Shown: piece after piece, positions 1-24,705 of the stretch
How the letters are laid out: every line of letters starts with the position of its first letter
How positions within the stretch are numbered: position 1 is the first letter of the stretch
Virus record (IMG/VR): IMGVR_UViG_3300037541_000487
Span: 1-24,705 of that record
Source of the DNA: a virus
Length of the DNA: 24,705 nt
Direction: 5' to 3' (one strand)
The notes under the pieces: generated by a model
The model's database searches: none
What the model saw: only the letters and a program-made list of their open reading frames with translations
What the model was told of the DNA's origin: nothing
Program-made: the position numbers and the translations under genes

Positions 1-55
1 CAAAACCAGCTTTGCGAAGGGTGTTTGCTACTTTGCGACTTGTGATAGTGTTCAT
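1..55 (-). CDS. Partial leftward gene, N-terminus only (hypothetical)
   Basis: An open frame on the minus strand begins with ATG at 55 and runs off the left edge after 18 codons, reading MNTITSRKVANTLRKAGF. A good Shine-Dalgarno, AAAGGA (complement of 64-69), lies 8 bases before the ATG, and a near-consensus minus-strand promoter sits at 107-135. These signals make a real gene likely even though only the start is visible. The fragment is basic and looks helical. I do not recognise the protein. Its position, divergent from the packaging genes and sharing their control region, would suit a small regulatory or early protein, but that is inference from context only. Confidence 0.6.
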   Translation of the reverse strand, partial: MNTITSRKVANTLRKAGF

Positions 56-106
56 CTCGGTGTTCCTTTCAGACTGGGTTAGCCACTTGCTCAACCTCAT
101 GTAATT

Positions 107-135
107 ACTATACAGGTATAACAGGTACTTGTCAA
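107..135 (-). promoter_or_regulatory. Leftward sigma70-type promoter
   Basis: On the minus strand a perfect -35 TTGACA (complement of 130-135) is followed by a 17-base spacer and a -10 TATAGT (complement of 107-112, 5 of 6 consensus). Transcription would start near base 100 and reach the ATG at 55 after a leader of about 45 bases. This is the best match to the housekeeping bacterial consensus seen in the window, so the leftward gene is probably read by host RNA polymerase. Confidence 0.7.
112..127. repeat. Direct repeat ACAGGTA in the leftward promoter spacer
   Basis: ACAGGTA occurs at 112-118 and again at 121-127, so the copies are offset by 9 bases and both fall between the -35 and -10 of the leftward promoter. 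Spaced repeats inside a promoter are typical of regulator binding sites. No regulator gene is visible here, so operator function is inference. Confidence 0.4.
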
Positions 136-150
136 CACTTTTAGAGAAGG

Positions 151-180
151 TTTACAAAAGTACACCAAGCGGTGTACAAT
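151..180 (+). promoter_or_regulatory. Rightward promoter for the packaging/structural block
   Basis: TTTACA at 151-156 (5 of 6 for -35), an 18-base spacer, and TACAAT at 175-180 (5 of 6 for -10) form a sigma70-type promoter. The start site would be near 187, giving a leader of about 50 bases before the GTG of the first packaging gene at 240. Its -35 lies only 15 bases from the -35 of the leftward promoter, so the two are back to back and may share regulators. Confidence 0.6.
160..177. promoter_or_regulatory. Palindromic operator candidate over the rightward promoter
   Basis: GTACACC at 160-166 and GGTGTAC at 171-177 are perfect inverted repeats around the 4-base centre AAGC. The palindrome fills most of the promoter spacer and covers the first half of the -10 box, so a dimeric protein bound here would block RNA polymerase. 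The symmetry is seen directly; that a repressor binds it is inferred from position. Confidence 0.5.
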
Positions 181-186
181 GATAAA

Positions 187-220
187 GCCAGCGGGTGCTG
201 TTGTGGTGTGGCTCGCTGGC
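187..220 (+). other. 5' leader hairpin before the first packaging gene
   Basis: GCCAGCG at 187-193 and CGCTGGC at 214-220 can pair into a 7-bp stem with a 20-base loop, right at the predicted 5' end of the rightward transcript. There is no following U-tract, so it does not look like a terminator. A 5' hairpin could protect the long late mRNA or affect initiation at the GTG 20 bases downstream. Confidence 0.4.
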
Positions 221-239
221 GACAATGAGAGGATAAACG

Positions 240-647
240 GTGGAGAAGCTACTGACAGCTAAACAAGAGGCGTTTGCACAAGCTGTTGCTGATGGCATGA
301 CACAGAGTGACGCTTACAGACAATGCTATGACACTAAAACAAAAAGCGATAAAAGCGTAAATGAGATAGCGAGCCAGTTAATGGCTAATCTCAAGATATC
401 CTCAAGAGTCGCTGAATTAAAAGCTAAATTATCGGATGAAATACTTTGGACTCGTAAAGAGGCGGCGGAAGTGCTAAGAAAGGCAATAAACTTAGGGCTT
501 GACGCTGAAAGTCACGGCAAATTATCCGATGCCGTAAAGTCTGTAGAGGTGTTAAATAAAATGACAGGCTTTGAGGCTCCTCAAGTAGTGGAGTTTAAAG
601 GCATGGGCGAGATTAGGCTTAACATCGTGAGAGGGGGTAGCGTTTGA
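240..647 (+). CDS. Terminase small subunit-like protein (Terminase_2 type)
   Basis: A 135-aa protein resembling small terminase subunits, which recognise the packaging site on phage DNA and hand it to the large subunit. The opening LTAKQEAFAQAVADGMTQSD, followed by a DAYRQCY stretch, is the usual start of the Terminase_2 family, whose N-terminus forms a helix-turn-helix. The rest, residues 40-110, is helical and should drive oligomerisation. The start is GTG at 240, preceded by AGAGGA 8 bases upstream; no better ATG is in frame. It is the first gene of the rightward operon and overlaps the next by 4 bases (TTGA). The large terminase follows one gene later, which fits. The family call is from pattern memory, not a search. 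Confidence 0.75.
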   Translation: MEKLLTAKQEAFAQAVADGMTQSDAYRQCYDTKTKSDKSVNEIASQLMANLKISSRVAELKAKLSDEILWTRKEAAEVLRKAINLGLDAESHGKLSDAVKSVEVLNKMTGFEAPQVVEFKGMGEIRLNIVRGGSV

Positions 648-1099
648 GCGATGACAACATTCACGGCTGGGCGAGCGAAGCCTTAGGCTTAATGGAGCAA
701 CACCCTGAAGGCTGGCTAAAGAAGGTTTACACCAATCTCTGTTTCATTATTGGCGCAACAGATGAGCGCATCACACAAGCCGAGAAGTGGAACACGGCAA
801 GGGAGCTTTACCAAGACGGCTTACCGCCTAGGGCGATAGGGGAGAAGCTAGGTTTATCGGCTCAACAGGTGCGCAACAAGGCCAGTAAGAGCGGGTGGCT
901 CAACCTTACCAAGCTGAATAAAACGCTAAAGAAAGCTCCACAGAAGGGCGGGGCGAGAAAAGCCCAAGACTTTATCAAGCAATGCGACGCTTGTCATAGC
1001 CAGTTCAGGGCGAAGAGTGGCAATGAGCGGGTGTGCAATACGTGCCAAGCTGGGGCAATACAGGCAAAGGCTGGCCTGTTGGGCTGGAATGAACAGTAA
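644..1099 (+). CDS. HTH and zinc-ribbon DNA-binding protein, possible second small terminase
   Basis: A 151-aa protein with two DNA-binding hallmarks. Residues about 55-86 form a helix-turn-helix, containing RAIGEKLGLSAQQVRNKASK and ending in a Trp like the HTH of some small terminases (PBSX and P2-type terminase proteins). Residues 114-134 carry a Cys4 zinc ribbon: C114, C117, C131 and C134, with 13 residues between the two pairs. Translation starts at TTG 644, overlapping the previous stop and preceded by a G-rich GAGAGGGGG. Its end overlaps the large terminase by 11 bases. Lying between a TerS-like gene and TerL, it may take part in packaging-site recognition, or be a separate DNA-binding or late regulatory protein. 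Domains are seen in the sequence; the role is inferred. Confidence 0.6.
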   Translation: MSDDNIHGWASEALGLMEQHPEGWLKKVYTNLCFIIGATDERITQAEKWNTARELYQDGLPPRAIGEKLGLSAQQVRNKASKSGWLNLTKLNKTLKKAPQKGGARKAQDFIKQCDACHSQFRAKSGNERVCNTCQAGAIQAKAGLLGWNEQ

Positions 1100-2417
1100 A
1101 CAGACTGTCGTTGACGTTGACCTAACGGTGATTCTTCAAGAGTGCCATGAGGCCGTGCTGTTTGACGAGTCACGTTTTAGGGTAGTCAATGCAGGGCGAG
1201 GCTGGGGAAAGACCTCACTTATCCTCGCCGATATGCTAATCGGGTGCTTGTCGGCTTACACAGATGCCCACGGAAGGCGTCTTTCGCCACGTTTAGGATA
1301 TATGGCTCCCGACTTAAAGCAGGCTAAGGACATCTTTTGGGAGAGAGCCGTACATTTCTTCCACCCTATCACACAGCGTATCAACAAGAGCGAACACCGT
1401 ATAACGCTCATCAATGGCGCAACGATTCACCTACTGGGTAGCAACTACCCTGACAGCGCAAGGGGTGCATACTTCACCCGCTTCTATCTTGATGAAGCGG
1501 CCTTTGCCAAGAGTACCGAGGAGATACTGACGAAGATTGTGAGGCCGATGCTAGACAGGGTGAGGCCATACGGCGAGATGCTCATAACCTCGACGCCTGA
1601 CGGCCGCAACTACTTCTATGACTTGTGCAAGCGTGGCATTGACAAAGAGGAGGGGTGGAGCTACCACTGCTACCCAAGCGTAGAGGGTAAGTTCATTGAC
1701 CAAGTGGCGGTGGATGCGGCGAGGCGAGACCTGACACTTGAAGCGTGGAGGCAGGAATACTTTGCAGAGTTCATTAACCCAAGCAACCAAGTGTACTATA
1801 AGTTTGACCGCACACAGCACACCAAGCCGATACCCTTTGTTGACGGCCTCACGATACACTGGGGATGGGATTTTAACATTGCCCCCGCCTGTCATAGCGT
1901 GCTGGCGCATCATCACAACGGGCGGATTTACGTGTTTGATGAGATAGCCGAGGGCAACACGCCTGCTAACATTGACGTGTTTTGCTCTAGGTACTCGCCC
2001 AACCAAGTGGTTGAGCTTAAGTTTTACGGCGATTACAACGGTAGCTACAGCACCAGCGGCACAGTTGACTACATCCTGATGGTTGAGACGCTTCACAGCA
2101 GGGGCTACAACGTGTCAATGCAGGACATCAGGGTGTACGGTGGCAACCCGATTGTGCGTAGCAGGGTGGAGAATGTCAACCGCCTGTTGCAAAATGCCAA
2201 CGGCGAGAGGCGTATGTTTGTTGATGCCAAGGCCGCCCCTAAGCTAACGAGAGACCTTGAAGAGATGCGACGCTTGCCCACAGGCGACATAGACAAGCGA
2301 AGTGACCCCACCCTAAGCCATGCGAGCGATGCCCTAGGCTATTTGGCATGGGTGCTAGAGCCTCCCAAAATGCCGAACACTGAGAAGCCTAAGACGCTAC
2401 TGTTACCAGTAGACTAG
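1089..2417 (+). CDS. terL: Terminase large subunit (packaging ATPase/nuclease)
   Basis: The packaging motor, about 442 aa from the ATG at 1089 (MNSKQTVVD). An in-frame ATG at 1017 lies deep inside the previous gene and gives an unlikely N-terminus, so I prefer 1089. Walker A is GRGWGKT at residues 36-42; Walker B is RFYLDEAAF with D135-E136; the coupling motif TSTP is at 167-170. The C-terminal half is the RNase H-like nuclease: D261 in HWGWDFN, E285 in VFDEI, and a closing D414 in LSHASDAL. All key parts expected of an intact TerL are present. It docks on the portal, pumps DNA into the procapsid using ATP, and cuts the concatemer. The gene overlaps its upstream neighbour by 11 bases, suggesting translational coupling. 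Confidence 0.93.
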   Translation: MNSKQTVVDVDLTVILQECHEAVLFDESRFRVVNAGRGWGKTSLILADMLIGCLSAYTDAHGRRLSPRLGYMAPDLKQAKDIFWERAVHFFHPITQRINKSEHRITLINGATIHLLGSNYPDSARGAYFTRFYLDEAAFAKSTEEILTKIVRPMLDRVRPYGEMLITSTPDGRNYFYDLCKRGIDKEEGWSYHCYPSVEGKFIDQVAVDAARRDLTLEAWRQEYFAEFINPSNQVYYKFDRTQHTKPIPFVDGLTIHWGWDFNIAPACHSVLAHHHNGRIYVFDEIAEGNTPANIDVFCSRYSPNQVVELKFYGDYNGSYSTSGTVDYILMVETLHSRGYNVSMQDIRVYGGNPIVRSRVENVNRLLQNANGERRMFVDAKAAPKLTRDLEEMRRLPTGDIDKRSDPTLSHASDALGYLAWVLEPPKMPNTEKPKTLLLPVD

Positions 2418-2461
2418 GGGTGTAACCATGGTTTACATCAGTAATGCAGGAGACCTACCCT

Positions 2462-2617: not shown

Positions 2618-2620
2618 CCG

Positions 2621-4675
2621 ATGGATGAGCTGGATTTGATGCCAGTAGGTGCAGAGGCTGATGCGTTGGCCTCTGTTTACACCTATGAGAATGACGAAGG
2701 CGAGCAGGTAGAGCTAACCGAGGACTTGCAGAAGCGAGTCATTAGCCAACTGGTTAAGCAGTTTGAAAACATGGAGCAAGACCGCAAGACTAAAGCGGAA
2801 CCTATATGGCGTGAAGTAGAGAAGCAACTAGAGCCAAGCTACAGCAGTAAGACGAAGGTGCTGGATATCAAGCTACCCTTTGCTAGGCAGGTGCTTAACA
2901 CCTTGCAAGGCCATATTTGGGCAAGAAGCCTACAGGGCGAGAAGGTATTGTTTGATGTGCAGGGCGATGATGAGCAAGCCCAAGAGCAAGCCCCTACCTA
3001 TAAAGCCTTACTCAACTACCTGTTTAGCCAAAACAAACTAAGGTGCAGGCTTGACCTACTGGCTGAGCATTACATCACAAAAGGCGTGTGCATCGCCTTT
3101 ACTGGGCGGATGACTAAGACACGCAAAGTGCGGGTGCTTAGTGGGCAGATGGGGACAGAGCTACAACTTGGTATGAATGGGGAGGCCGAGTTTGTAGAGG
3201 TTGAGCAGACAGTAGCCGAGTTGGCAGACTTGCAGGTGGTTGACCCCTACACCTTTGTGTTTGATACCGACAACGCCGACAACTGGGATGAGTGCTTGAA
3301 GGCATACCGCAAGCCTATCGTCTATGAGGACTTAGCCGACAACACACTTTACGGCAACCATAGCGAGCTTAAAGAGCAGGTAAAGCAGCATATAGAGCAA
3401 CAGAGCAGTGGTTACAACAACGTCGTAAAGGGTGTGAAGGCAAGCAAAGACGCTAAGGGCTTTTACCCTGATGGCAGGGTTGAGCTACTAGAGTTTTATG
3501 GTGACGTGCGCTTACCTAACGGTGACTTGTTGCGTAACTGGATGGTGACAATAGCAGCTAGAAGCCACGTTGTGCGTTTTGAGCCTAACCCCTACTACGT
3601 CAACCCCTTTGTTAAGGCGTTGTATGAGGAGACTACTTGCGGGTGGGGGCAAGGTGGCCCTATTGGCCAAGTGGTTAGCCTGATGGAAGGTGCTAGCCGT
3701 ATGGCTAAGCAGGCCGTGGTAAGTAGTGAATATGCTATGAATCCGCCATACCTTGCACCTAAGGGGATGCTTCAGCAAAAGCAGTACAACATTAAGCCAG
3801 GCGATGTAGTGACGTATGAGCCTAACACAATGCTACCCAACGCCTTGCCACAACCCTTAGTGGCCAACCCTAACCCTGCCTTCCCTATCTTGCAGTTGTT
3901 AGAGAGCCAGACAGAAGCCACGACAGGAGCCACAAGGCAACTATCGGGTAATGTGACTAGCAGGGATAAGGCACAGACGGCTACAGAGTTTCAAGGCTTA
4001 CAGGTTATTGGCAACCTTGTGATGGATAGGGTGATTGACCGCTTTAACCTTGACATGAAACTGCCAGCGATTGAGAAGCTGGCCTTGATGCAAAGCATGT
4101 TTTACCCTAAAGCCCTGACGATACCTGTTGAGGGGAGGGGTGGGGAAAGCGAGTTTGTGCAGGTTGAGCCTAGCCTATACTACCAAAACTACAAGTTCAT
4201 CATTGTGGATAACAAGAGCGAGATGGAGCGTAAGCAGGGCTTGCAAGAGAAGATAGCCCTCATACAGCAAGGCGCACAGATACCCGACATTGCACAGCGC
4301 ATGGACTGGGTAGAGCTTTACAAGTCACTATGGCGTGACCTTGGCTATGGCGAGGCCGACAAGTGGATTATGAACCACGATGAGCTGGTTGTTAAGCTGA
4401 CGAAAGACACGGCAGCAATGGCGTTAGGCCAAGCCTTAGGGCAACAATCAGCTATGTTAGCAATGGGTACAGAACAGGCCATGATGATGGCAGGACAGGT
4501 GGCTTTAGATGCAGTTGATGCCGAAGGTGGATTACAAGCCGAGGGAGCTGGCGGAATTGGCACGCCAGTTGGAGCTATGCCAAGCATGGGTGGAGTTGAG
4601 CAAGGTGGTGAAGCAGCATTGCTTGGACAACTTGCAGGCATCGCAACCGCAAGCCCACAGGGGGCAGGCGTTTAG
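2621..4675 (+). CDS. Portal protein
   Basis: A 684-aa protein forming the dodecameric ring at one head vertex through which DNA enters and leaves. The order TerL, portal, scaffold, coat supports the call. The length and the early segment (residues about 50-160, including FARQVLNTLQGHIWARS) resemble portals of the P22-like class. Residues about 432-460 hold TGATRQLSGN followed by KAQTATEFQG, a signature of portal C-terminal halves. A helical stretch at 465-500 and a basic region follow. The last 80 residues are rich in Ala, Gly, Gln and Met and probably lie in the barrel or are disordered. The ATG at 2621 has only a weak AAAGG about 10 bases upstream, so translation may be coupled to the 51-aa gene. 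Its 3' end overlaps a small gene in another frame. Confidence 0.87.
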   Translation: MDELDLMPVGAEADALASVYTYENDEGEQVELTEDLQKRVISQLVKQFENMEQDRKTKAEPIWREVEKQLEPSYSSKTKVLDIKLPFARQVLNTLQGHIWARSLQGEKVLFDVQGDDEQAQEQAPTYKALLNYLFSQNKLRCRLDLLAEHYITKGVCIAFTGRMTKTRKVRVLSGQMGTELQLGMNGEAEFVEVEQTVAELADLQVVDPYTFVFDTDNADNWDECLKAYRKPIVYEDLADNTLYGNHSELKEQVKQHIEQQSSGYNNVVKGVKASKDAKGFYPDGRVELLEFYGDVRLPNGDLLRNWMVTIAARSHVVRFEPNPYYVNPFVKALYEETTCGWGQGGPIGQVVSLMEGASRMAKQAVVSSEYAMNPPYLAPKGMLQQKQYNIKPGDVVTYEPNTMLPNALPQPLVANPNPAFPILQLLESQTEATTGATRQLSGNVTSRDKAQTATEFQGLQVIGNLVMDRVIDRFNLDMKLPAIEKLALMQSMFYPKALTIPVEGRGGESEFVQVEPSLYYQNYKFIIVDNKSEMERKQGLQEKIALIQQGAQIPDIAQRMDWVELYKSLWRDLGYGEADKWIMNHDELVVKLTKDTAAMALGQALGQQSAMLAMGTEQAMMMAGQVALDAVDAEGGLQAEGAGGIGTPVGAMPSMGGVEQGGEAALLGQLAGIATASPQGAGV

Positions 4676-4775: not shown

Positions 4776-4841
4776 GTTTGTCGCTAACATCAGGGCGTTA
4801 TCTGATGGTATCCGCAGCCAAGCGTAAGAGGCACTTAACGT

Positions 4842-5639: not shown

Positions 5640-5652
5640 ACGTGTTGCAACC

Positions 5653-5674
5653 AGCATGAGGTTTTAACATTATG
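5653..5674 (+). promoter_or_regulatory. Leader and ribosome site of the coat gene, shared with other late genes
   Basis: AGCATGAGG followed by an AT-rich spacer TTTTAACATT leads into the coat ATG at 5672. Nearly the same block stands before the gene at 19417 (AGCATGAGG at 19398-19406, then ATTTTAAGTT), and a shorter version, AGGATTTAAGATT, precedes the gene at 11463. The long A/T spacer after the Shine-Dalgarno is unusual for this genome, where most genes have 5-9 bases, and may give strong unstructured initiation sites. Confidence 0.4.
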
Positions 5675-6568
5675 GTATTAAGCAGAGGCTCCGCTACCAA
5701 GGGTACACGTAGCTTTATCCCCATTGTCTTTTCGTCAATGGTATTAGACATCTTAGACAAGTCGACCGTTGCCGTTGATTGTGTAAGCCGAGACTATGAA
5801 GGCGAGTTTAAAGAAGGTGACTTAGTTACGATTCGTGACTTTGGAGCCACAAGTATTACGGTAGGCGACCACACCGTAGATAGCACTATCACGTATGGTT
5901 TAACGGCTGAACAAAGCCAAGATATGCTGATTGACCAGCTAAAGTACACGGCTTTTCGCCTTGACTACGTGGACACTAAACAGAGTGACCTAGACTTGAT
6001 GGAAGGCAACAAAGAGCGTGCCGCTATCGCCTTACGTGATACCATTGACAGCTTTTTGCTCTCAACAATGGCGGCGGGTGCGCCAGCACTCAACACTATT
6101 GGTGCTACGACAGCAGGCAGTGTCATCACGTTGGATGCGGCTAATATTTTCGCCTTTTTCAACGATATGTACACCTTGCTGGAAGAAAGCAACGCTACGA
6201 GTTTAGGCGGTACACCGTTTGCTATTGTGCCTCCTGCTGTCATGGGCGTGATTCGTAAGAGTGACCAGCTTGTACACGCTACCGCTAGCGGTGACGCTGT
6301 GGTGCGTAACGGCTTCCAAGGTAACTTTGCCCAGTTCGCTGTCAAGCAGAGTACCAACGTGCCTTACAACGCAGCGGGTACAGGCACAGAGCCTTACTGG
6401 AACATCTTGTTTGGTTACAAGAAAGCCACACAGTTTGCTATGCAGATTAACGTGCTTGAGGACTTGAAACTCCAAACCACGTTTGCTGATGCTAGCAGAA
6501 TGTTGGCGGTGTACGGCTCAAAAGTAACCCTACCCAACGCTTTAGGGCGTGCAATCGTAAAGGTATAA
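5672..6568 (+). CDS. Major capsid (coat) protein
   Basis: A 298-aa protein directly after the scaffold, expected to build the icosahedral shell with the HK97 fold. The N-terminal pattern is typical of coat proteins of the P22 gp5-like group: SSMVLDILDKSTVAVDCVSR, then a GDLVTIRDFG beta segment, then an E-loop-like stretch leading to the FRLDYVDTKQSD motif near residue 100. The helix around 110-135 would be the long spine helix. The C-terminus (KVTLPNALGRAIVKV) is beta-rich. No N-terminal protease cleavage signal is apparent, in line with a separate scaffold. The gene has its own leader with an A/T-rich Shine-Dalgarno spacer, and only 3 bases separate it from the next gene. Confidence 0.87.
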   Translation: MVLSRGSATKGTRSFIPIVFSSMVLDILDKSTVAVDCVSRDYEGEFKEGDLVTIRDFGATSITVGDHTVDSTITYGLTAEQSQDMLIDQLKYTAFRLDYVDTKQSDLDLMEGNKERAAIALRDTIDSFLLSTMAAGAPALNTIGATTAGSVITLDAANIFAFFNDMYTLLEESNATSLGGTPFAIVPPAVMGVIRKSDQLVHATASGDAVVRNGFQGNFAQFAVKQSTNVPYNAAGTGTEPYWNILFGYKKATQFAMQINVLEDLKLQTTFADASRMLAVYGSKVTLPNALGRAIVKV

Positions 6569-7204: not shown

Positions 7205-7916
7205 GATTATTCAGTTTGGAGACGTGCTAACAGGTACAACTCAAAACACGACCGCTACCCCTAGTGCGCCTATCTTTTTGGGCAACGGCACGTTACGCTT
7301 ACCTAACGGCTTGGCTATTGGCTGGCCTGGTGGTGCGCATGATGTTGACTTAGCTCAACTGATTGCTAACGTAATTGTAACCGCACACGCTGGCACAAAC
7401 CCAACGCTAACGACGGTAGTGCAAGGTGTTAATGACCCCTTTAGCAACAACACCACGATTGCCACAACCGCCCTGACAGCAGCAGCTACGACGATTACCT
7501 TGGCCGAGCGAACTGGCATTGCTCAAAACAGCTTTGCTTTGTTGATTGACGTAAAAGCTCAAGGGTATGAGTGGGTGCAAGTGACCTCCTCCGCTACCAC
7601 TGGTGCGGGCGACCACACTATTGTACGGGCAAGGCGTGGAACTACTGCTAAAGCGTTTGCCGTGGGTAGCTACCTGTTGTTTACTAACGACTGGGTAACG
7701 ATTCGCTCCAACAACAGCACAACCACAACCCTTACTACTGGGGCGGTAGATATTTCAGCAGCGACCGCTACCGCACCTACCACGGCTGTTATTGACACCC
7801 AAGCCCTAGGGATGACGACTATCGGCTACCCTGTTATCCGCTTGCTGTCAACTGTGGGTGGTACATCAACACCTACAGCCACGTACCGGACAACCCTTGC
7901 TGGTGTAAAGAAGTAG
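7194..7916 (+). CDS. Beta-rich structural protein, likely head decoration or fibre
   Basis: A 240-aa protein dominated by Thr, Ala, Val and Gly in alternating patterns typical of beta structure. Residues about 95-160 match a beta-sandwich module repeatedly seen in phage surface proteins: a TTITLAERTG strand, an EWVQVTSSATTGAGDHTIVR core, and the RRGTTAKAFAVG turn, which resembles the 'RG..GT.A..H..G' signature of such modules. The second half carries Thr-rich strands (NNSTTTTLTTGAVDIS). No enzyme motif is visible. It starts inside the previous gene (11-base overlap) and sits between coat and connector genes, so a decoration protein or head fibre is the best reading; a tail-associated role is possible. 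Confidence 0.6.
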   Translation: MADKIIQFGDVLTGTTQNTTATPSAPIFLGNGTLRLPNGLAIGWPGGAHDVDLAQLIANVIVTAHAGTNPTLTTVVQGVNDPFSNNTTIATTALTAAATTITLAERTGIAQNSFALLIDVKAQGYEWVQVTSSATTGAGDHTIVRARRGTTAKAFAVGSYLLFTNDWVTIRSNNSTTTTLTTGAVDISAATATAPTTAVIDTQALGMTTIGYPVIRLLSTVGGTSTPTATYRTTLAGVKK

Positions 7917-7924: not shown

Positions 7925-8698
7925 ATGGCCTCAACACTAACACTGTTTGATTATATGCGGCGAGTGCAAAGAGAAGCGGGGCTTAAACAAAGCTCCGCTT
8001 TTCCTGCTACGCCTTCCACCGAAGAAGCAAGGGTAATAGACGGCATTAACGCCGTGTTGCGTGAGCTAAACAATAAATACTACCTAGCCTTTAAGCTGGT
8101 AGAGCAGGATTTTACAAGTTCATCACTGGTTGACCGTTACAACCTAAGCGAAAGCCCCTACAATTTTAGCTACTTTGACGTTAGCAGGATGGCACGCAAC
8201 GGGGTTATCCGCAAAGAGGATGGCCTGCCCTTACAGTACATTGACTACACCCGCAGGGATGTAATGCGCCCCGAAGCTACGGCTGGGGGCGGTATCCCTA
8301 CTTACTACACAGCAATAGGCGAGACCTTAATTCTATGGCCTAAGCCCAGTGGCGAAGTGTTCACAGTGCGCTACTACCCCACCTATATCGGGACAGACTC
8401 AACAGGAACAACCAGCAAGCTAACGCTCACCCTAGAGGGTGATATCACTATGCTGGATGACCACTGGCAAGATGCCTTGGCCTACGGTGCAGCGTGTAGA
8501 GCCTACAGAGCAGATAAGACGGATGACAAGTATGCCGAGCTTAAACGGCTATGGGAGGACGCACGCAACACCCTACACGGCATGATTCAAGGCGGTGGCG
8601 AAGAGGCAGTGCCTAGCTTTAACATGCTTGGTTCGGCTAGCTACCATGACTTGAGAGACAGACGCTTTTACCCCTTTGGCAGTGGGTTTGAGTTGTAA
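7925..8698 (+). CDS. Head-to-tail adaptor (tail tubular A-like)
   Basis: A 257-aa protein at the usual place of the connector ring below the portal. The N-terminus (MASTLTLFDYMRRVQREAGL, then DGINAVLRELNN near residue 40) is the helical opening of adaptor proteins such as P22 gp4 or T7 gp11. The middle contains YYTAIGETLILWPKPSGEVF followed by a YYP stretch, a beta pattern common in these adaptors. The helical part (DHWQDALAYGAACRAYRADK) and a disordered tail follow. It would bind the portal and hold the propeller/nozzle protein encoded by the following gene, which begins on its stop codon (TAATG). The exact family is inferred from pattern and order. Confidence 0.65.
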   Translation: MASTLTLFDYMRRVQREAGLKQSSAFPATPSTEEARVIDGINAVLRELNNKYYLAFKLVEQDFTSSSLVDRYNLSESPYNFSYFDVSRMARNGVIRKEDGLPLQYIDYTRRDVMRPEATAGGGIPTYYTAIGETLILWPKPSGEVFTVRYYPTYIGTDSTGTTSKLTLTLEGDITMLDDHWQDALAYGAACRAYRADKTDDKYAELKRLWEDARNTLHGMIQGGGEEAVPSFNMLGSASYHDLRDRRFYPFGSGFEL

Positions 8699-13009: not shown

Positions 13010-15453
13010 TGGTTGAGCAATTACAGGGTGGTGTAAGCCTAGACTTTCTCAAGCAAGATTCTGACTTTTTAGCTGCCCCACCTGAACAGCAAAAGGCCTA
13101 CTTGCAACAGTACGTTTTGCCTGATTTAGACCCTGACTTTGCCCAAGCTCCACCCGAGGAGCAGAACGCTTACCTTGACCAGTATGTGTTGCCCAACTTT
13201 ATCCCCAACCCCACCCCGCAACCACTACCCCCAACACAGACCCCTCCACCAGTAAGCCCACCAGCGGTAGCTCAACGACCCATTAACAAGCCAATTGACC
13301 CATTAGGTGGCTATACAGCAATGGGGCAGTTTGGAGCCTTTGCCGCCCCTTATATCCCCCAAGGCATAGCCTATGGTGCTTCAGCGGGGAAGGTGTTACC
13401 TAAACAGGGCTACCCTCAAACCTTAGCGGGGCAAGTGCCGTTTACCGTTGGTGACTTAATCGGTGGCCTTGTCGCCGCTGGTAGTGGTGCTTTACTTGGT
13501 GCAGGTGGTTTGGCGGCTACAGGCGGGACTTACGCTGGCATACGTGAGGCCAATAGGCAAAGCCTTAACCGTGGTGGAGGTAGATACCTTGACCCTACCC
13601 CTTATGGCCAGCTCCCCCAAGCTGAAAAGAACAAGATAGCCCAAGGGGTCGCAACCCAAGGAATCTTTGGTGCATTGACCACTGGCCTACCCGCTGCCCT
13701 TGGCAGGGGCTTACTGGCCAAGATAGGCACAGGGGCGGCTTTGGGTGGCGCACAGGGTGTCACACAGAACGCCTTAGAGCAGTACACCGACAAGGGCAAG
13801 GTGGATATTAAAGAGACCCTACCCGCTGGTTTGTTTGGTGGAGCCTTAGGCGGTGGTATTGGAGCTATCAGTGGCACAGCCCCCACCATGAAGCGTAGGG
13901 AAGTGGAGCAACCACCGCGGCTACCCTTGGTAACTAGGGCTTTACGGCAAGAGCTAACAGGTGGTAAGCCAAGGGTCAACCTTGAGACAGAGGCTAAGCT
14001 ACTGCCCCAGCCACAAGAGCCAACGCCACTAGGCCGTGTGCCAAGGGATGTAACGGAAGCTATAGACGCTATTGCAGCCAAGGCCATTAACAAGCCAGTG
14101 CAAAAACCAGCAGGCAGGCCAGCACCCGCTAAGCAGGAGCAACCCAGCATTGTACCTGCTAAGGCTAAGCCTGTAGAGCCTAAGCAAGTAGAGGCAAAGG
14201 CGGTTAAGGATGCGCCAACTAAAGCACAACGGCGGGCAGAAGAATCACCAGCCCCCAAGGTTAAAATAAAAAAGCCTGCTACTGTTATCAAGACAGACGC
14301 ACAATTACAAGAAACTCTTAGCCCACTAAAGCAAAAGCCTAAAGACGTTGAAGGGCTTATCCCCAAGGTCGTACTAAACGAGGATGAAGTGCGCTACAAA
14401 AGCACAGAAGCCTTTAAGGGTAATGCTGATGAGCAGATTTACAGCGACTCAATAGACACGTTATTTAGACGTGAAAATGGGGATGTGCGCTTAATCCAAG
14501 ACGAGCTAGACAATCTTGTCGATATGGACATGATTACAAAACCTAAAGACTGGAAGGCTATTAAAACACAAGATGAGCTTGAGGCATTACTCACAGAGGA
14601 TTACGAAGGCACAGACCTTACTTTTGCTTTTGACTTGCTAGATAGCCAAAACGAATACGGTCACAAGTATTACGCTATTGAAAACTATGTGGATGACCCA
14701 CGTAACCCCAACACTGGCAAGACAGAGCGAGATGCGATGCTTGGCTACCTGTATGACACGGGTAAGTATGACATTATAGAGCCTGATGCTAGTGTGCTAA
14801 ATACGGAACAGATTGCAAAAAGTATTCAAAAGTATTTCCAAAACGAAGGATTTACGGTAAGCCTAAAGCGTTCAGGATTAAGTGATAGCCATTACTTGCG
14901 TGTTTACGACGATGTTAGGATTGGCGAAGGCTTTAGCCAGTTTGAAGATGGTTATGAAATTGCTATCCGAAACCACAAGGCAGCCAGCCAGCACAGCGTG
15001 AACGGCTACGAGCTGGATGTTGATAGTAGGACAACGCCCAAAGACATAGTTGAAGCTGTCAAGCAGATACAAAAAGATATTGATGAGACGATTGCCGACA
15101 GGCTTTTTGATAAAAAAAGAGGTGGGAAATTCTGGGCTAAGCCAGTAGTGGAAGCCTTTGAAGCCACAGAAGCCCTTGGTAAACAGATTGACGCTGACCC
15201 AAGCACAGCAGACTTGCCAAGCCCCCCTAGCCCAAGGCAGGCTAAGATTGACGCACAGGTGGAGCGGTACAACAAGGCACTGGCTAACAACGACCCCATA
15301 GAGCAGGGTGGAGCAGCTAGAATGATTGAGGCCGAACTAGCCTTAGCCATTAAAAACGATGGCATGGATAAGGCTGGCTTTGTGAAGGCGACTAAAGATA
15401 TGCCCAAAGAAGTATTTGACGACATAGCAAAGAGGTTGAATTGCGGTGGCTGA
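13009..15453 (+). CDS. Large ejection protein with membrane segments and an appended C-terminal domain (814 aa)
   Basis: An 814-aa multi-domain virion protein. Residues 17-64 are two copies of a 24-aa unit (DFLAAPPEQQKAYLQQYVLP and DFAQAPPEEQNAYLDQYVLP). A Pro-rich linker follows, then hydrophobic Gly/Ala segments at about 147-177, 211-252 and 272-291 that could insert in the host membrane. Residues 340-430 are a basic Pro/Lys/Ala linker. From about 455 the protein is acidic and globular. Residues about 600-695 contain GFTVSLKRSGLSDSHYLRVY, a later EIAIRNHK, and an Asp-Val stretch, resembling a small domain (SxxSxYLxV...IRxxxH) I associate with phage and mobile-element proteins. ATG overlaps the previous stop by one base, with GGGGG upstream. 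It may carry a passenger function into the cell. Confidence 0.55.
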   Translation: MVEQLQGGVSLDFLKQDSDFLAAPPEQQKAYLQQYVLPDLDPDFAQAPPEEQNAYLDQYVLPNFIPNPTPQPLPPTQTPPPVSPPAVAQRPINKPIDPLGGYTAMGQFGAFAAPYIPQGIAYGASAGKVLPKQGYPQTLAGQVPFTVGDLIGGLVAAGSGALLGAGGLAATGGTYAGIREANRQSLNRGGGRYLDPTPYGQLPQAEKNKIAQGVATQGIFGALTTGLPAALGRGLLAKIGTGAALGGAQGVTQNALEQYTDKGKVDIKETLPAGLFGGALGGGIGAISGTAPTMKRREVEQPPRLPLVTRALRQELTGGKPRVNLETEAKLLPQPQEPTPLGRVPRDVTEAIDAIAAKAINKPVQKPAGRPAPAKQEQPSIVPAKAKPVEPKQVEAKAVKDAPTKAQRRAEESPAPKVKIKKPATVIKTDAQLQETLSPLKQKPKDVEGLIPKVVLNEDEVRYKSTEAFKGNADEQIYSDSIDTLFRRENGDVRLIQDELDNLVDMDMITKPKDWKAIKTQDELEALLTEDYEGTDLTFAFDLLDSQNEYGHKYYAIENYVDDPRNPNTGKTERDAMLGYLYDTGKYDIIEPDASVLNTEQIAKSIQKYFQNEGFTVSLKRSGLSDSHYLRVYDDVRIGEGFSQFEDGYEIAIRNHKAASQHSVNGYELDVDSRTTPKDIVEAVKQIQKDIDETIADRLFDKKRGGKFWAKPVVEAFEATEALGKQIDADPSTADLPSPPSPRQAKIDAQVERYNKALANNDPIEQGGAARMIEAELALAIKNDGMDKAGFVKATKDMPKEVFDDIAKRLNCGG
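13057..13200 (+). repeat. Tandem repeat of a 24-aa unit
   Basis: Residues 17-40 and 41-64 of the 814-aa protein are consecutive copies of the pattern D-x-D-F-x-x-A-P-P-E-x-Q-x-A-Y-L-x-Q-Y-V-L-P. The two 72-bp DNA units have diverged at many third positions, so the duplication is old and kept at the protein level. Confidence 0.75.
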
Positions 15454-19372: not shown

Positions 19373-19397
19373 CCTTACCGATACAATGAGACTAACT

Positions 19398-19419
19398 AGC
19401 ATGAGGATTTTAAGTTATG
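19398..19419 (+). promoter_or_regulatory. Leader of the first tail-fibre gene, similar to the coat leader
   Basis: AGCATGAGG (19398-19406) then ATTTTAAGTT before ATG 19417 closely matches the region before the coat gene. The 44-base gap here has no convincing terminator: the imperfect stem at 19351-19374 lacks a U-tract. Confidence 0.4.
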
Positions 19420-20148
19420 GCCAATCTTGGCGGATTGTTAATCGCAGCAGGTACAGCAACCACTAACCCTAACCCTAACACCCTGATTTTGCCCACCACA
19501 GTAGTGGCTGGAACGGATGTATTTACCAGCTCCGTGGCTCATGGCTACGTGACGGGCAACAAGGTAAGGCTAGGCGCATCTGCTGGTGGAGCCTTGCCCG
19601 CTGGCATAAGCGCAACCACTGACTATTACCTAAGGGTTATCAGCGCAACGACCTTTACCTTGCACCTTACTGAAGCCGCCGCCATTGCTAACGCTGTCAT
19701 TGTGGATGCTACCGACACTGGAACGGCCGTATTTGGTGTCAACCCTCTGCTCATGTTCCCACAGACCCCCCTTGCTACAAAGACACAGCAAACCCCTAGT
19801 GCCGTGTGGACAACCCTTACCACGGCGGGGACTTACAGTAAAGCCTTACGCCCACGCAACAACTATGCGGATGGTATTAACAAAAACATCCTGCTTAACT
19901 TTATCCCCTCGGCTGGCTTGGCGGCTACTTACACGGCTACGGTGTGGGCTTACAACGACACCCATGCACGCAGGGCTTTAACTAACCCTTGGTCAACACC
20001 TATCACTAGTGGCACGTTTAACTTTACGGGCAACCAGCTTGTTGAGTTGGCTAATGATGGTAGCCTGCTTTGGTATGTTCAACTAAGCTCAATCAGTAGT
20101 GGCTCTGTCGCCGTGTACTTTGATAACGGTGCAGCGGAGGCTTTCTAG
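19417..20148 (+). CDS. Tail fibre or fibre-attachment protein (243 aa)
   Basis: A 243-aa beta-rich protein at the start of the receptor-binding block. Residues about 30-105 contain FTSSVAHGYVTGNKVRLGAS, LPAGISATTDYYLRVISAT and FTLHLTEAAAIANAV, matching a small domain common in phage tail and fibre proteins in which an 'H.Y.TG..V' strand is followed by 'LPAGL....YYV' and 'F.L..T...A'. The C-terminal half is a Thr/Ser/Asn-rich beta region ending in YFDNGAAEAF. No enzyme motif is seen. It has its own leader after a 44-base gap, while the next gene starts on its stop codon. Confidence 0.6.
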   Translation: MANLGGLLIAAGTATTNPNPNTLILPTTVVAGTDVFTSSVAHGYVTGNKVRLGASAGGALPAGISATTDYYLRVISATTFTLHLTEAAAIANAVIVDATDTGTAVFGVNPLLMFPQTPLATKTQQTPSAVWTTLTTAGTYSKALRPRNNYADGINKNILLNFIPSAGLAATYTATVWAYNDTHARRALTNPWSTPITSGTFNFTGNQLVELANDGSLLWYVQLSSISSGSVAVYFDNGAAEAF

Positions 20149-20966
20149 TGGCTACCTACACCCCTAACACATCAGGTATTGAGATTGGCGAGCCTGTTCA
20201 AGCAAGTCACCTGCTTAATAACTTCTCTGCCATACAGACCAGCGTTAATGCCATTGAAGCGGTGCAGATTGCAAGCAACGCCGTCACTACGGCCAAGATT
20301 AACAACGGTGCGGTGACAGCCGACAAGATAGCCAGTAGTGCAGTGGTTGAGGCTAAGCTAGGAACAGGGGCAGTAACCACTGCTAAGCTAGCCAGCAATG
20401 CCGTGACGACGGTTAAGGTGACAGATGCCAACATTACCAACGCCAAGCTGGCGGATGAGGCCAAGGCTTACATTTCCAAAAGCTCCCCCTCGGCTGCAAC
20501 GGAAGTTATCTTTACAGGGCTTAACTTTGCCACATTTCAGCAATACGAGATATTCTTTAACCTCGCAAAGAGTGCCGACAACAACGCCTTGCAAATGCAA
20601 TATAGTACAGATGGTGGCTCTAGCTGGGTAACATCAGGATATGAAGTAGGTACAGAAGCGAAGATTATTGGTAGCACGACAACAGGCGCACAAAATGGCT
20701 CTTCCGAAGGGTCGATAGAGCTTGCTTTGTTTGGTTCCACCGCTGGCAACGGAGCAATTGGCCGTGTGGAATTCGGCCAAGAAACAGACCAAGATCAATT
20801 CATGGGCTTTTTTACAACCACTTGTAGGCGTGCAGGCGTAACGGATACCTTGGTATTAAGAGGTGGCTTCCGTGATTTTCAGTCAAGCTCAATAGATGCG
20901 GTTAAGTTGTTTGTAACGTCAGGCACATTAACAGGTAATGTTTTGCTTAAAGGGACACCACGTTAA
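20148..20966 (+). CDS. Tail fibre with decapeptide-repeat shaft (272 aa)
   Basis: A 272-aa fibre-type protein. An N-terminal adaptor of about 40 residues is followed by six copies of a 10-residue unit (residues 41-101), for example IASNAVTTAK and LGTGAVTTAK. Such x-x-x-A-V-x-x-x-K-(I/L) repeats form trimeric shafts in many tail fibres. Residues 110-272 form a beta-rich head with ALQMQYSTDGGSSWVTSGYE, a common phage surface-protein pattern, and end in VLLKGTPR. The start is GTG at 20148, overlapping the TAG before it, with CGGAGG 7 bases upstream. The only GATC found in the window lies here at 20793. The role is probably receptor binding or as a connector for the spike encoded next. Confidence 0.65.
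   Translation: MATYTPNTSGIEIGEPVQASHLLNNFSAIQTSVNAIEAVQIASNAVTTAKINNGAVTADKIASSAVVEAKLGTGAVTTAKLASNAVTTVKVTDANITNAKLADEAKAYISKSSPSAATEVIFTGLNFATFQQYEIFFNLAKSADNNALQMQYSTDGGSSWVTSGYEVGTEAKIIGSTTTGAQNGSSEGSIELALFGSTAGNGAIGRVEFGQETDQDQFMGFFTTTCRRAGVTDTLVLRGGFRDFQSSSIDAVKLFVTSGTLTGNVLLKGTPR
20268..20450 (+). repeat. Six 30-bp repeats coding a fibre shaft
   Basis: Six in-register units code the decapeptide pattern with Ala-Val at positions 5-6 and Lys at position 10. Copies 1, 4 and 5 are closest (NAVTTAK, GAVTTAK, NAVTTVK). The array could expand or contract by recombination and change fibre length. Confidence 0.75.
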
Positions 20967-23533
20967 TGAGCAACAACTGGATTTATAACAGCCCTTTAGG
21001 TGAGCGAGTTGCAAACCTATTTGATAGCGTTGAACAGGCCAACAACGAACAAGGGCTTGTTGACTGGGTTAAGCTATCAGGCAACGATGGTGATAATGAC
21101 GGCTGGGTAAACGCTGTTAAGGAACACCTTAACATACGACAGTATGGGGCAAAAGGTGAAGGGCTTAGCAATGACACCTTGGCCTTCCAGCGTGCTGTTG
21201 CTGTGGGACGTGGCTTTAGGATACCCAAAGGACGCTACCGCCTTAATGGCACGTTAGAACCAAAGGGCGCACTGTCAGGCAGTGTTAACTTAGAAGACTA
21301 TGGCCTTATAGGTGACGGTGTTATCAACGACTTTCAAGCCCTGCAAAGAGCCATAGCATCAGGGTTAAGCGTAATCATCCCTGATGGTATTTACATGCTT
21401 GAGGGTGACTTAACCTTATCCCAAGCGGTTGATTTAATCATAGAACTTAACATTGACAACTTTGGTGCTAAAGGCGATGGCGTAACGGATGACTTAATTG
21501 CTTTCCAAAAAGCACTAGACTCATGCGAAGGTAGAGTCGTAAAAGGCTCAGCTAAGGTTTATCTTATAAGTGATACTCTCTATATCCCACCTTCTGTAAC
21601 CTTTGAGGGGCAGGGGGCTGGTGACCCCTTTAATATCGGTGGCACCTTCCCTAAAACTGTAATACAACTTAGTACAACTACAGAAGGTACTAAGCGAATA
21701 TGGACAGACGTAGGCTTGCCAGCCACACCAGCAGGCACTTTAGTTGATACGCCTATTAGTGTTGGTGTGGTGGCAACAGGCGGGGTGATTAGCTTAAAAA
21801 AGTTTACTATTAGAAGCAACACTGATATTGGCGACAACACTAACACTTGGGACGTGCATTTCCTCTCTGCTGGTGCCTTCCGCTTAAACCTAGACAGGGT
21901 TAACACCCAAGGGACGGCACGCTATTGTGGCTTTTTGCTTGACGCTACTTGGTCAGTGTCTAACACGGCTTTGCAAGATTTACACACCAACACTTATGGG
22001 CGCACTGTGCCAAGTTCAGGCTCAAGCAATGAAATGACCTTTTCGCATTGCTATTTTCAAGGTGGCCAATGGGGTATTATTGCTCAAGGCACAAAGCGCA
22101 CAGATACTAGCCCAGGCATTTGGTCAACTGGCGGAATGTCAGATTTAACTGCTCTAGGGTGTCGTGTTAGCAACACCCCTATTAGGCTAGGCACTCAGGG
22201 GAATGGCCAGCCTATTTATGCTTTAGACAGTGGTGGTTACAAACGAGATTTACATAACGGCTTCCAAAACCGCCGCTGGATAGGTTGTGGCTTTAGAGCG
22301 ACATCAGGGTGTAGTGTTTACTTAGACAGTGGTGCGTATGAGGAGTTTATTGGTGTTTATGGTGAAAGCCGTGGTGACAGAGTACCTTCTGTTGAAGTGG
22401 TTAAAACTATAGACGCTTTAGGGGTAGTGCAAAAAGCTTTTACTGGAAATTATGTTGGCAACCCCGCATTAGTGCCTACCGAGGTTTACATTTACCTAAC
22501 TGATACAACTCGGATTGACCCTATTACTAATGGCATTAAGCCTGCTACTATATGGACAACATCAACAGGTAGCTTTACTTTAGGCGCAGTTGGCTACGAT
22601 AGTACTGCTGGAAGGGTTTACTTAACTGCCGATATTATTACAGGTACTATTACAGCAGGCCAAACTGTGACACAGGCAGCAGGCCAAACCATAGGGACGT
22701 ACGGCTTTTACGCTACTGATAGAGCAGAGGCGACGTATAGCCAAGGGCAGTCTAGCTTTCAGGCACCTGACAAGCAAAAAATATCACATCTTGGTACAAG
22801 TGGTGCCTTGCTAGGTGGAAACTTCAGGTGTGCAGGCATATGCAGTACAAGCGAGGCTTTAGTGCTTGGCGCATTAGATAGCGTCACCTTTGACTGTGAA
22901 AACGGTTCATACAACATCTATCATAACCTTTATGGTGCTGGTACAAATACGTTTGCTAGGCTAAGAATTGATGATGATGCTATCTACCACTATCAGGCCG
23001 CTAACTTTGGGCAAACTGGCAGACGCTGGGGTATTGGCTATTTCACAAGCCTTAACGTAAGCGATACTGCCACAACCCGCACTAACCTAGGGCTTGGCAC
23101 GGCAGCCGAGACTACCTACGAGACTGGCACCTTTACCCCTGTATTGCAAGGGTCAACCACGGCTGGGGTTAATACCTACAGTGTGCAACAAGGCCAGTAT
23201 GTAAAAGTGGGCAGGCTGGTTACTTGCATGATGCGGTTACAGCTATCTGCTGTAGGTACAGCTGGTAACGCTATGGCTGGCGACGCACAGATTAGCGGTC
23301 TCCCCTTTGCTATAAGCCAAACGCCCATAAGTGCGGTGGCCGTCAACTCTGCTCTTAACGTAACTGGTGTGTTAGGGGACAACTACTACTTCCAAATAGC
23401 GACAGGTACAGTCATACCCTTTAACCGCAATAGCGTTGTTGCCACCTTAACAACAGCCAGCGGTGTGCCAGTAACCGACATTACAAACACCACGCAATTT
23501 AGAATTAACTTTAGCTACTTGGCAGCAAGCTAG
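20966..23533 (+). CDS. Tail spike with beta-helix (pectate-lyase-like) fold
   Basis: An 855-aa spike likely to bind and cut host surface polysaccharide. Residues 1-55 form an attachment domain. Then come three successive copies of the cap motif found at the front of pectate lyase-superfamily beta-helices: NIRQYGAKGEGLSNDTLAFQ (from 56), NLEDYGLIGDGVINDFQALQ (from 108) and NIDNFGAKGDGVTDDLIAFQ (from 162). Residues about 205-690 carry beta-helix-type strands with many Gly, Asn and Thr. TATTRTNLGLGTAAETT near 700 is a common fibre linker, and the C-terminal domain from about 720 (GTFTPVLQGSTTAGVNTYS, YVKVGRLV, ISGLPF) matches a spike tip module. Catalytic residues cannot be assigned by eye. ATG overlaps the previous stop by one base. 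Confidence 0.78.
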   Translation: MSNNWIYNSPLGERVANLFDSVEQANNEQGLVDWVKLSGNDGDNDGWVNAVKEHLNIRQYGAKGEGLSNDTLAFQRAVAVGRGFRIPKGRYRLNGTLEPKGALSGSVNLEDYGLIGDGVINDFQALQRAIASGLSVIIPDGIYMLEGDLTLSQAVDLIIELNIDNFGAKGDGVTDDLIAFQKALDSCEGRVVKGSAKVYLISDTLYIPPSVTFEGQGAGDPFNIGGTFPKTVIQLSTTTEGTKRIWTDVGLPATPAGTLVDTPISVGVVATGGVISLKKFTIRSNTDIGDNTNTWDVHFLSAGAFRLNLDRVNTQGTARYCGFLLDATWSVSNTALQDLHTNTYGRTVPSSGSSNEMTFSHCYFQGGQWGIIAQGTKRTDTSPGIWSTGGMSDLTALGCRVSNTPIRLGTQGNGQPIYALDSGGYKRDLHNGFQNRRWIGCGFRATSGCSVYLDSGAYEEFIGVYGESRGDRVPSVEVVKTIDALGVVQKAFTGNYVGNPALVPTEVYIYLTDTTRIDPITNGIKPATIWTTSTGSFTLGAVGYDSTAGRVYLTADIITGTITAGQTVTQAAGQTIGTYGFYATDRAEATYSQGQSSFQAPDKQKISHLGTSGALLGGNFRCAGICSTSEALVLGALDSVTFDCENGSYNIYHNLYGAGTNTFARLRIDDDAIYHYQAANFGQTGRRWGIGYFTSLNVSDTATTRTNLGLGTAAETTYETGTFTPVLQGSTTAGVNTYSVQQGQYVKVGRLVTCMMRLQLSAVGTAGNAMAGDAQISGLPFAISQTPISAVAVNSALNVTGVLGDNYYFQIATGTVIPFNRNSVVATLTTASGVPVTDITNTTQFRINFSYLAAS
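21131..21580 (+). repeat. Three successive beta-helix cap modules
   Basis: Residues 56-97, 108-148 and 162-205 of the spike each read N-(I/L)-x-x-(Y/F)-G-x-x-G-(D/E)-G-(V/L)-x-(N/D)-D-x-x-A-(F/L)-Q followed by a basic or Pro-Lys/Asp-Gly turn and a hydrophobic strand. One copy is usual; three in a row are not. The first and third keep GAKG, the second has GLIG. Confidence 0.7.
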
Positions 23534-23541
23534 GAGGCACT

Positions 23542-23736
23542 ATGGAACTAACACTTGATTTACACGGCAATATTGAAGTAAAGCAAACGATTGACGGCAA
23601 CCTACACCGCCAAGTGGTGGAGTGTGGCGATTGGGCTAAGGCCACTGCTCTTGGCTTGAGCCAGTACGCTACGGCAAACTGGACAACTGAAATGATAGAC
23701 GCTTGGGAAACCTTGAAAGAGGAGGCTAACGAATAA
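23542..23736 (+). CDS. Small hypothetical protein (64 aa)
   Basis: A 64-aa acidic soluble protein, starting MELTLDLHGNIEVKQTIDGN and ending in a helix (WETLKEEANE). The ATG at 23542 has a strong AGGAGG 5 bases upstream. It lies between the spike and the spike-tip-like gene; the following ATG overlaps its stop by one base. The N-terminal half looks beta and the C-terminal half helical. I do not recognise a family. Position suggests a chaperone or small structural partner of the spike, but there is no direct evidence. Confidence 0.55.
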   Translation: MELTLDLHGNIEVKQTIDGNLHRQVVECGDWAKATALGLSQYATANWTTEMIDAWETLKEEANE

Positions 23737-24173
23737 TGAGTCTTGGATTTATAGCAGAAGCTACGGCAAACAGTGTGACGTGGACAGCGGTAACAGGTGT
23801 GTCATGGGATGGCACAGCCCCCACAGATTTAATTGGTGCCGAATACAACCTAACTAGAGTGGGCAAAAATGTCACAGTCAGCTTACTTTTAGCTTATGAC
23901 ACAGTAGGGGCAACCAACACAAGCGTTGTTATCCCTTGGCAAGCAGAGTGGCCAACACCAAGCAAACCAAGTTTTATTGATGCTGCCCTTGAAGTTTTCG
24001 GTGGGGGGTTCCATATCATAGCAGGGAGTGGGGATGCTGCCCCGACTACTTACACTGCCGCCCCTTATGTTTTAAGGCGAAACGCTGCCAATAACGGTGA
24101 TGAGTATCGTGCCTCTTTTAACAGTTCGGCACGCTCTAACCTTATCGGCTCGTTTACGTACCAAGCAATATAG
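23736..24173 (+). CDS. Spike-tip-like beta protein (145 aa)
   Basis: A 145-aa beta-rich protein. GAEYNLTRVGKNVTVSLLLA followed by an SVVIPW stretch and a Pro-rich turn resembles the spike C-terminal domain (GQYVKVGRLVTCMMRLQLSA, later ISGLPF): both have 'Y..VG..VT', a strand, a Gly-rich turn and a strand ending near Pro. It therefore looks like a free-standing copy of the tip module. It may be a receptor-binding or chaperone subunit, or a remnant of an exchangeable spike end. AGAGGAGG lies upstream and the ATG overlaps the previous stop. Function is inferred. Confidence 0.55.
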   Translation: MSLGFIAEATANSVTWTAVTGVSWDGTAPTDLIGAEYNLTRVGKNVTVSLLLAYDTVGATNTSVVIPWQAEWPTPSKPSFIDAALEVFGGGFHIIAGSGDAAPTTYTAAPYVLRRNAANNGDEYRASFNSSARSNLIGSFTYQAI

Positions 24174-24181
24174 GAAGCCCC

Positions 24182-24508
24182 ATGACAGACTCTCTCCCCG
24201 CCATAATTGACGCTGTACAGAGGCTCCTAGAATCGCCCACAACAGGCGGTTTTGTACTCTGCCTAGTCACACTGGCAGGGGTTGGCTACCTTGTTAAGCT
24301 GGTCATAACCAGTTTCTTGCCAAGGTTAGACAGGCTAGAGCAAGGGATGGCTAACCTCAACTTGACCGCTCAAGCCAACGGCAAACAACTAGAGGGGGTG
24401 GTGGAAGAGCTAAAAGAAGTGGTAAACTGTTTAAAGGATAACCATGAGCCAACGGTTAGGCATTTCCCGCATCACAGCAGAGAACACAGCCAGAGAGGGC
24501 GCAACTAG
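24182..24508 (+). CDS. Single-span membrane protein, lysis candidate (108 aa)
   Basis: A 108-aa protein with a short N-terminal helix, one clear membrane segment at residues about 22-44 (GGFVLCLVTLAGVGYLVKLV), a helical region with coiled-coil character (LDRLEQGMANLNLTAQANGK to about 86) and a His/Arg-rich tail (VRHFPHHSREHSQRGRN). Placed after the tail genes, where lysis genes often lie, it could be a holin-like or spanin-like protein; no lipoprotein signal or endolysin domain is visible. AGGA lies 6 bases before the ATG. The next gene begins right after its stop. A 22-codon frame (24444-24512) overlaps its 3' end but is weakly supported. Confidence 0.5.
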   Translation: MTDSLPAIIDAVQRLLESPTTGGFVLCLVTLAGVGYLVKLVITSFLPRLDRLEQGMANLNLTAQANGKQLEGVVEELKEVVNCLKDNHEPTVRHFPHHSREHSQRGRN

Positions 24509-24705
24509 ATGATACCTATTGTATTTGGGACACTTGAGTTTCTGTTTAAGAGTGGGACGGTGGCCAACCTAGCCCTAGTGGCGTGGACGATTTACCGCCA
24601 TGTTGGGGGCAAGACAGGCTGGCAAGTGGTTTACGACCTTGGCACATCATCGCTGTTGATGCAACTTAAGACTTACCTACCCAAGCGGATGACCGAGAGC
24701 GATTT
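24509..24705 (+). CDS. Partial membrane-associated protein at the right edge
   Basis: An open frame starting at ATG 24509, directly after the previous TAG, with GAGAGGG about 9 bases upstream. It runs off the window after 65 codons. The start MIPIVFGTLEFLFKSGTVAN is followed by LALVAWTIYRH, so the N-terminus is hydrophobic enough for a membrane segment; the rest is amphipathic (GWQVVYDLGTSSLLMQL) and basic (YLPKRMTESD). Adjacent to another membrane protein, it may belong to the lysis module, for example as a holin. It cannot be assigned to a family without its C-terminus. Confidence 0.5.
   Translation, partial: MIPIVFGTLEFLFKSGTVANLALVAWTIYRHVGGKTGWQVVYDLGTSSLLMQLKTYLPKRMTESD

What the first reader, a model, noticed from the sequence alone, without database searches (positions are those of the whole stretch)
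1..24705. GATC is almost absent from the whole window
Reading the + strand through (the site is a palindrome, so both strands are covered), I found GATC only once, at 20793-20796. About 95 would be expected by chance in 24.7 kb of near-balanced DNA. GATA, GATG and GATT are abundant, so this is specific loss of one tetramer and not general avoidance of GAT. Strong loss of a short palindrome is the classic mark of selection by a GATC-cutting restriction system. It also removes every HIP1 site (GCGATCGC), common in many cyanobacterial genomes.
Basis: partly seen in the sequence, partly recalled or inferred. Interest (0 to 1): 0.75.

Follow-up and report, generated by a model that had tools for sequence, protein, structure and literature searches.

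The report
Phage stripped of many restriction sites
This uncultured phage has lost almost every GATC, and also at least six other short restriction-enzyme target sequences, by selection that is still acting; it is a strong example of a known way for phages to escape DNA-cutting defences, and it hints at which enzymes its unknown host (probably a non-photosynthetic relative of cyanobacteria) carries.

Summary
GATC occurs once (20793) in 24.7 kb: 95 are expected from base composition, 21 after dinucleotide shuffling, and 25 with protein, codon usage and dinucleotides all held fixed. The window is a fragment of a tailed-phage genome. It has also lost CGCG, CCGG, CCNGG, GGNCC, RGCGCY and GDGCHC (0-6% of expectation), and much of CCAGA, GGYRCC and TCGA (8-28%). 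GGCC, ACGT and CATG are near normal. The loss continues 6.1 kb beyond the window in an overlapping contig and is shared by two 94%-identical relatives. Synonymous differences between these relatives create lost motifs 3-8 times less often than random placement, while control palindromes appear at the random rate, so selection is still acting. Evasion of several Type II restriction systems explains this; codon bias, dinucleotide bias and mismatch-repair avoidance do not. The host is probably not a HIP1-bearing cyanobacterium: portal and tail relatives are prophages in class Vampirovibrionia, where GATC-, GGNCC- and CCGG-cutter families are present. The actual host and its enzymes were not identified. 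This is an extreme new case of a well-known phenomenon.

The parts
20793..20796 (.). the only GATC
13916..13919 (.). the only CGCG
7886..7889 (.). the only CCGG
1590..1593 (.). first of five TCGA sites (others at 5762, 14519, 16293, 20712)
3797..3801 (.). one of three CCNGG sites (CCAGG), kept in the 94% relatives
3656..3660 (.). one of two GGNCC sites (GGCCC), kept in the 94% relatives
2780..2783 (.). GACC here; GATC in relatives L002 and L003 (a site gained or lost by one base)
240..647 (+). terminase small subunit
   Evidence: Pfam PF03592
1083..2417 (+). terminase large subunit
   Evidence: PHROG 2
2621..4675 (+). portal (head-tail adaptor) protein; basis of the host inference
   Evidence: PHROG 332
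5672..6568 (+). major capsid protein
   Evidence: PHROG 267
7925..8698 (+). SU10-type adaptor protein
   Evidence: Pfam PF24175
8698..10221 (+). tail or stabilisation protein; basis of the host inference
   Evidence: PHROG 5107 and MW202554 match
20148..20966 (+). tail fibre protein, holds the only GATC
   Evidence: PHROG 892
20966..23533 (+). pectate-lyase-like tail spike
   Evidence: Pfam PF12708

Best explanation
The window is part of a double-stranded DNA tailed phage whose genome has been purged of the recognition sites of several Type II restriction endonucleases met in its hosts. A genome that enters the cell unmethylated can be cut wherever a site remains, so variants that lose sites by (mostly synonymous) mutation survive and variants that gain one are removed. 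GATC is one of seven motifs reduced to about 6% of expectation or less (GATC, CGCG, CCGG, CCNGG, GGNCC, RGCGCY, GDGCHC); three more are strongly reduced (CCAGA, GGYRCC, TCGA). Shown: the losses, their independence of protein, codon and dinucleotide content, their spread beyond the window and in relatives, and continuing counter-selection. Inferred: that restriction enzymes are the agent. Probable but not shown: that the host belongs to Vampirovibrionia, and that it carries matching enzymes.
For: Motif counts against nulls that keep protein, codon usage and dinucleotides: GATC 1/25, CGCG 1/25, CCGG 1/36, CCNGG 3/51, GGNCC 2/57, RGCGCY 1/38, GDGCHC 0/43, while GGCC 106/111, CATG 59/63 and ACGT 69/64 are normal. 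Same loss in the 6.1 kb extension and in 94% relatives. Synonymous differences between relatives create lost motifs 3 v 25, 7 v 30, 2 v 17 and 7 v 22 (observed v random), control palindromes 26 v 23, 22 v 23, 19 v 18, 18 v 17. The lost words are prototype Type II specificities. GATC-cutting DpnII-type, GGNCC-cutting Eco47II-type and CCGG-cutting HpaII-type enzymes exist in the class that holds the related prophages. The phenomenon is established for dsDNA phages (PMC6286503).
Against: The host is not identified, so no enzyme is matched to this phage. Each cognate family is found in a minority of genomes of the class, and a HaeII-type enzyme (RGCGCY) in none of 119, without a working control. 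CCAGA is asymmetric and was not matched to a known enzyme. Most of the phage's replication genes are unseen, so other anti-restriction means cannot be excluded.
Confidence: 0.88

Rival explanations
1. GATC was lost to escape Dam/MutH-type mismatch repair, raising the mutation rate, as discussed for phiX174, or to avoid GATC methylation signals.
For: phiX174 lacks all GATC, and restoring 20 sites lowered its mutation rate eightfold (PMC5014478).
Against: At least six other motifs unrelated to Dam are lost as strongly, and all are counter-selected together between relatives.
Confidence: 0.04
2. Codon usage or dinucleotide bias (strong depletion of TC, CG, AT and GA) lowers these words without any selection on the words themselves.
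For: TC is at 0.39 and CG at 0.64 of expectation, and this explains part of the zero-order deficit.
Against: The loss remains when codon usage, protein and every dinucleotide count are kept. GGCC and ACGT are normal and WGGCCW is in excess.
Confidence: 0.03
3. The motifs are not those of one host: the phage (or its lineage) met several hosts in turn, each with one or a few restriction systems, and the losses accumulated.
For: In the class of the putative hosts each matching enzyme family occurs in a minority of genomes: 17/194, 4/119 and 4/119.
Against: The lost motifs remain under counter-selection between close relatives (motifs were pooled), so the pressures act on a short time scale. One sampled genome (G414) holds both a GGNCC-type and a CCGG-type enzyme.
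Confidence: 0.4

Closest known systems
Type II restriction-site avoidance in non-temperate dsDNA phages (Rusinov et al. 2018, PMC6286503)
   Same: Near-complete loss of palindromic Type II sites, including GATC, at the DNA level.
   Different: More motifs lost at once than in any other sequence examined here (6 palindromes with a 4-bp core; next 4); host unknown.
Arthronema virus TR020 and Phormidium phage Pf-WMP3 (Saffermanviridae)
   Same: Distantly related portal; strong loss of short palindromes (TR020: GATC 0/173, GGCC 0/124; Pf-WMP3: GGCC 3/126, GGNCC 0).
   Different: Different and smaller motif sets; GGCC, lost there, is normal here.
Prophages of Vampirovibrionia (L035 Gastranaerophilales; L031 Vampirovibrio chlorellavorus)
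   Same: Portal, capsid and tail genes homologous; L035 also terminase.
   Different: Only about 20-38% protein identity; the prophage loci keep most of these motifs (L031: GATC 88/81, CCGG 165/89).
phiX174 loss of GATC (PMC5014478)
   Same: GATC is lost.
   Different: There the proposed reason is mismatch repair; here many other motifs are lost too.

Membership tests
Type II restriction-site avoidance | Recognition-type words far below expectation | tested here: met
Type II restriction-site avoidance | Not explained by codon, protein or dinucleotide content | tested here: met
Type II restriction-site avoidance | Specific to certain palindromes, others normal | tested here: met
   GGCC 106/111, ACGT 69/64, CATG 59/63
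Type II restriction-site avoidance | New sites are selected against | tested here: met
Type II restriction-site avoidance | Host carries the cognate enzymes | tested here: inconclusive
   Host unknown; DpnII-, Eco47II- and HpaII-type enzymes occur in the likely host class, HaeII-type not found
Type II restriction-site avoidance | Phage DNA unmodified and resistant to the enzymes because sites are absent | not testable with these tools
   needs virion DNA
GATC loss as escape from Dam/MutH mismatch repair | GATC alone is lost | tested here: not met
   CGCG, CCGG, CCNGG, GGNCC, RGCGCY and GDGCHC lost as well
Phage of a HIP1-bearing cyanobacterium | Nearest relatives in photosynthetic cyanobacteria | tested here: not met
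   All 69 tail-protein matches in 292 genomes of the phylum are genomes that also appear with a portal match in the Vampirovibrionia class search

The most novel reading that the evidence does not exclude
A phage of non-photosynthetic Vampirovibrionia has escaped a stack of about ten restriction specificities by sequence purging alone, so that its genome is a readable list of its host's restriction repertoire.
Probability: 0.3. Interest if true: 0.6.

Novelty: new member of a known kind. Interest (0 to 1): 0.42.

Why it matters
Restriction-site avoidance is known, but so many motifs purged together, with counter-selection measurable between 94%-identical relatives, makes a clean natural case. 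The lost motifs give testable predictions of the restriction enzymes in an unidentified host, and the same analysis could help link uncultured phages to hosts.

Tried and rejected
CRISPR-spacer search of the first 20 kb in 386 genomes of the phylum: best match E 2e-4, none in a repeat array. Similar DNA in phage records: none. Sample names through the metagenome numbers: no paper holds them. HaeII-type enzyme in the class: not found, but no control matched either. Codon bias, dinucleotide bias and mismatch-repair avoidance were rejected as sole causes (see rivals). The cyanobacterial-host reading (portal similar to Pf-WMP3, TR020, CHP58; capsid best hit 'Microcystis phage MaAM05') was weakened when that record proved collinear with the Vampirovibrio chromosome and the portal matched Vampirovibrionia prophages much better. 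Conversion of TC to TT by deamination as the cause of the TC depletion: no TT excess at codon junctions.

Full report
Check. GATC occurs once, at 20793. Expected: 95 from base composition, 44 from a maximal-order Markov model, 21.2 +/- 4.4 from dinucleotide shuffles, 54.6 +/- 6.0 from shuffling synonymous codons, and 25 when protein, codon usage and all dinucleotide counts are kept.

Not only GATC. CGCG and CCGG also occur once each. With the strictest null, and not counting instances that contain another core motif, observed/expected is CCNGG 3/51, GGNCC 2/57, RGCGCY 1/38, GDGCHC 0/43, CCAGA 3/38, GGYRCC 6/40 and TCGA 5/18. GGCC is normal (106/111) and WGGCCW is in excess, so the loss follows enzyme-like recognition rules and not G+C-rich palindromes in general. 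Further motifs (GCWGC, CTCAG, GCCCG, CTGCAG and others) are reduced but were not pursued. The list of enzyme specificities was recalled from memory and supplemented by an exhaustive scan of words and spaced palindromes; many motifs were tested, so the weaker entries are tentative.

What the window is. It is a virus record holding the structural half of a tailed phage: terminase subunits, portal, major capsid protein, SU10-type adaptor, tail proteins and a pectate-lyase-like spike. A contig 99.8% identical over the compared stretch (L001/G001) overlaps it and adds 6.1 kb with lysis-type genes and many genes on the other strand. That extension has GATC 0/24, CGCG 0/23 and CCGG 0/23, and relatives L002 and L003 at 94% identity show the same loss.

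Continuing selection. Third-position synonymous differences between the window and L002 or L003 were compared with the same kinds of change placed at random. Gains of lost motifs were 3 v 25, 7 v 30, 2 v 17 and 7 v 22 (observed v random mean); gains of eight control palindromes were 26 v 23, 22 v 23, 19 v 18 and 18 v 17. L002 and L003 cover overlapping stretches and share differences, and each pair is counted in both directions, so these are not four independent tests; and motifs were pooled. The result says that selection is recent and not only inherited composition.

Host. The portal has homologues in 100 of 240 genomes drawn from the class of Vampirovibrio chlorellavorus, nearly all of them genomes of 1.6-2.2 Mb, and the tail protein in 69 of 292 genomes of the phylum, all of which are in the class list. 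A named example is L035, Candidatus Gastranaerophilales, with terminase, portal, capsid and tail genes. Capsid relatives at about 30-40% also occur in other phyla but without a detectable portal nearby. No other phylum was searched for the portal, so exclusiveness is not proved; at about 30% identity the host of the window phage may differ. GATC-cutting DpnII-type enzymes occur in 17 of 194 genomes of the class, Eco47II-type (GGNCC) in 4 of 119, HpaII-type (CCGG) in 4 of 119, HaeII-type in none. The specificities are those of the family prototypes, from general knowledge.

Mechanism. Established phage biology (PMC6286503) is that sites of orthodox Type II systems, and GATC, are depleted in dsDNA phages, with outright elimination commoner in non-temperate ones. 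The window fits: many sites at less than 10% of expectation. Escape from mismatch repair, as for phiX174 (PMC5014478), does not explain the other motifs. Bloom-forming cyanobacteria are known to stack many restriction systems (PMC8262939); whether the host here does so, or whether the phage met several hosts in turn, is open.

How unusual. Among 85 sequences of at least 10 kb fetched here the window had 6 palindromes with a 4-bp core at less than 10% of zero-order expectation; the next had 4, and 69 had 0 or 1. This sample is not random. TR020 and Pf-WMP3 show that strong loss of a few motifs occurs in phages with related portals.

Side observation. TC is strongly depleted (0.39 of expectation) on the coding strand in all three codon positions, and GA is depleted in the extension where many genes are on the other strand. 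GA is also low at the less constrained codon positions, so part of the asymmetry reflects coding constraints. It is shared by some capsid relatives (L103, L105, L106). It is not explained.

Verdict.

Noticed in passing
window 1-24705; L023; L103, L105, L106: The TC dinucleotide is at 0.39 of expectation on the coding strand, in all three codon positions (0.53, 0.39, 0.29) and in the gaps between genes; GA takes its place (0.43) in the extension with many genes on the other strand. Shared by some capsid relatives (0.42-0.58; median of 203 loci 0.94). Not explained by the lost motifs.
   Followed up: partly
L030, L211 (MW495066.1, Microcystis phage MaAM05/PhiMa05); L031; G006:C22: The 274 kb record called a jumbo Microcystis phage carries bacterial housekeeping genes (for example secE-nusG-rplK-rplA, trpS, pgi, ftsH, proS) and is collinear at 82-91% DNA identity with the Vampirovibrio chlorellavorus chromosome over 40 kb examined, with a phage structural cluster of roughly 10 kb inside. 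It looks like a Vampirovibrionales chromosome piece with a small prophage, which would bear on the claim that a cyanophage encodes many ribosomal proteins (PMC13157829).
   Followed up: partly
L029 (TR020), L028 (Pf-WMP3), L011, L044-L052: Other phages and prophages lack their own palindromes: TR020 GATC 0/173 and GGCC 0/124; Pf-WMP3 AATT 0/221 and GGCC 3/126; L011 GCGC 1/149; Lachnospiraceae prophages CGCG 0.
   Followed up: no
window coding sequence: GANTC, GAWTC, CCWWGG and TGGCCA are in excess (31/21, 17/7.5, 60/40, 21/12) while other palindromes are depleted.
   Followed up: no
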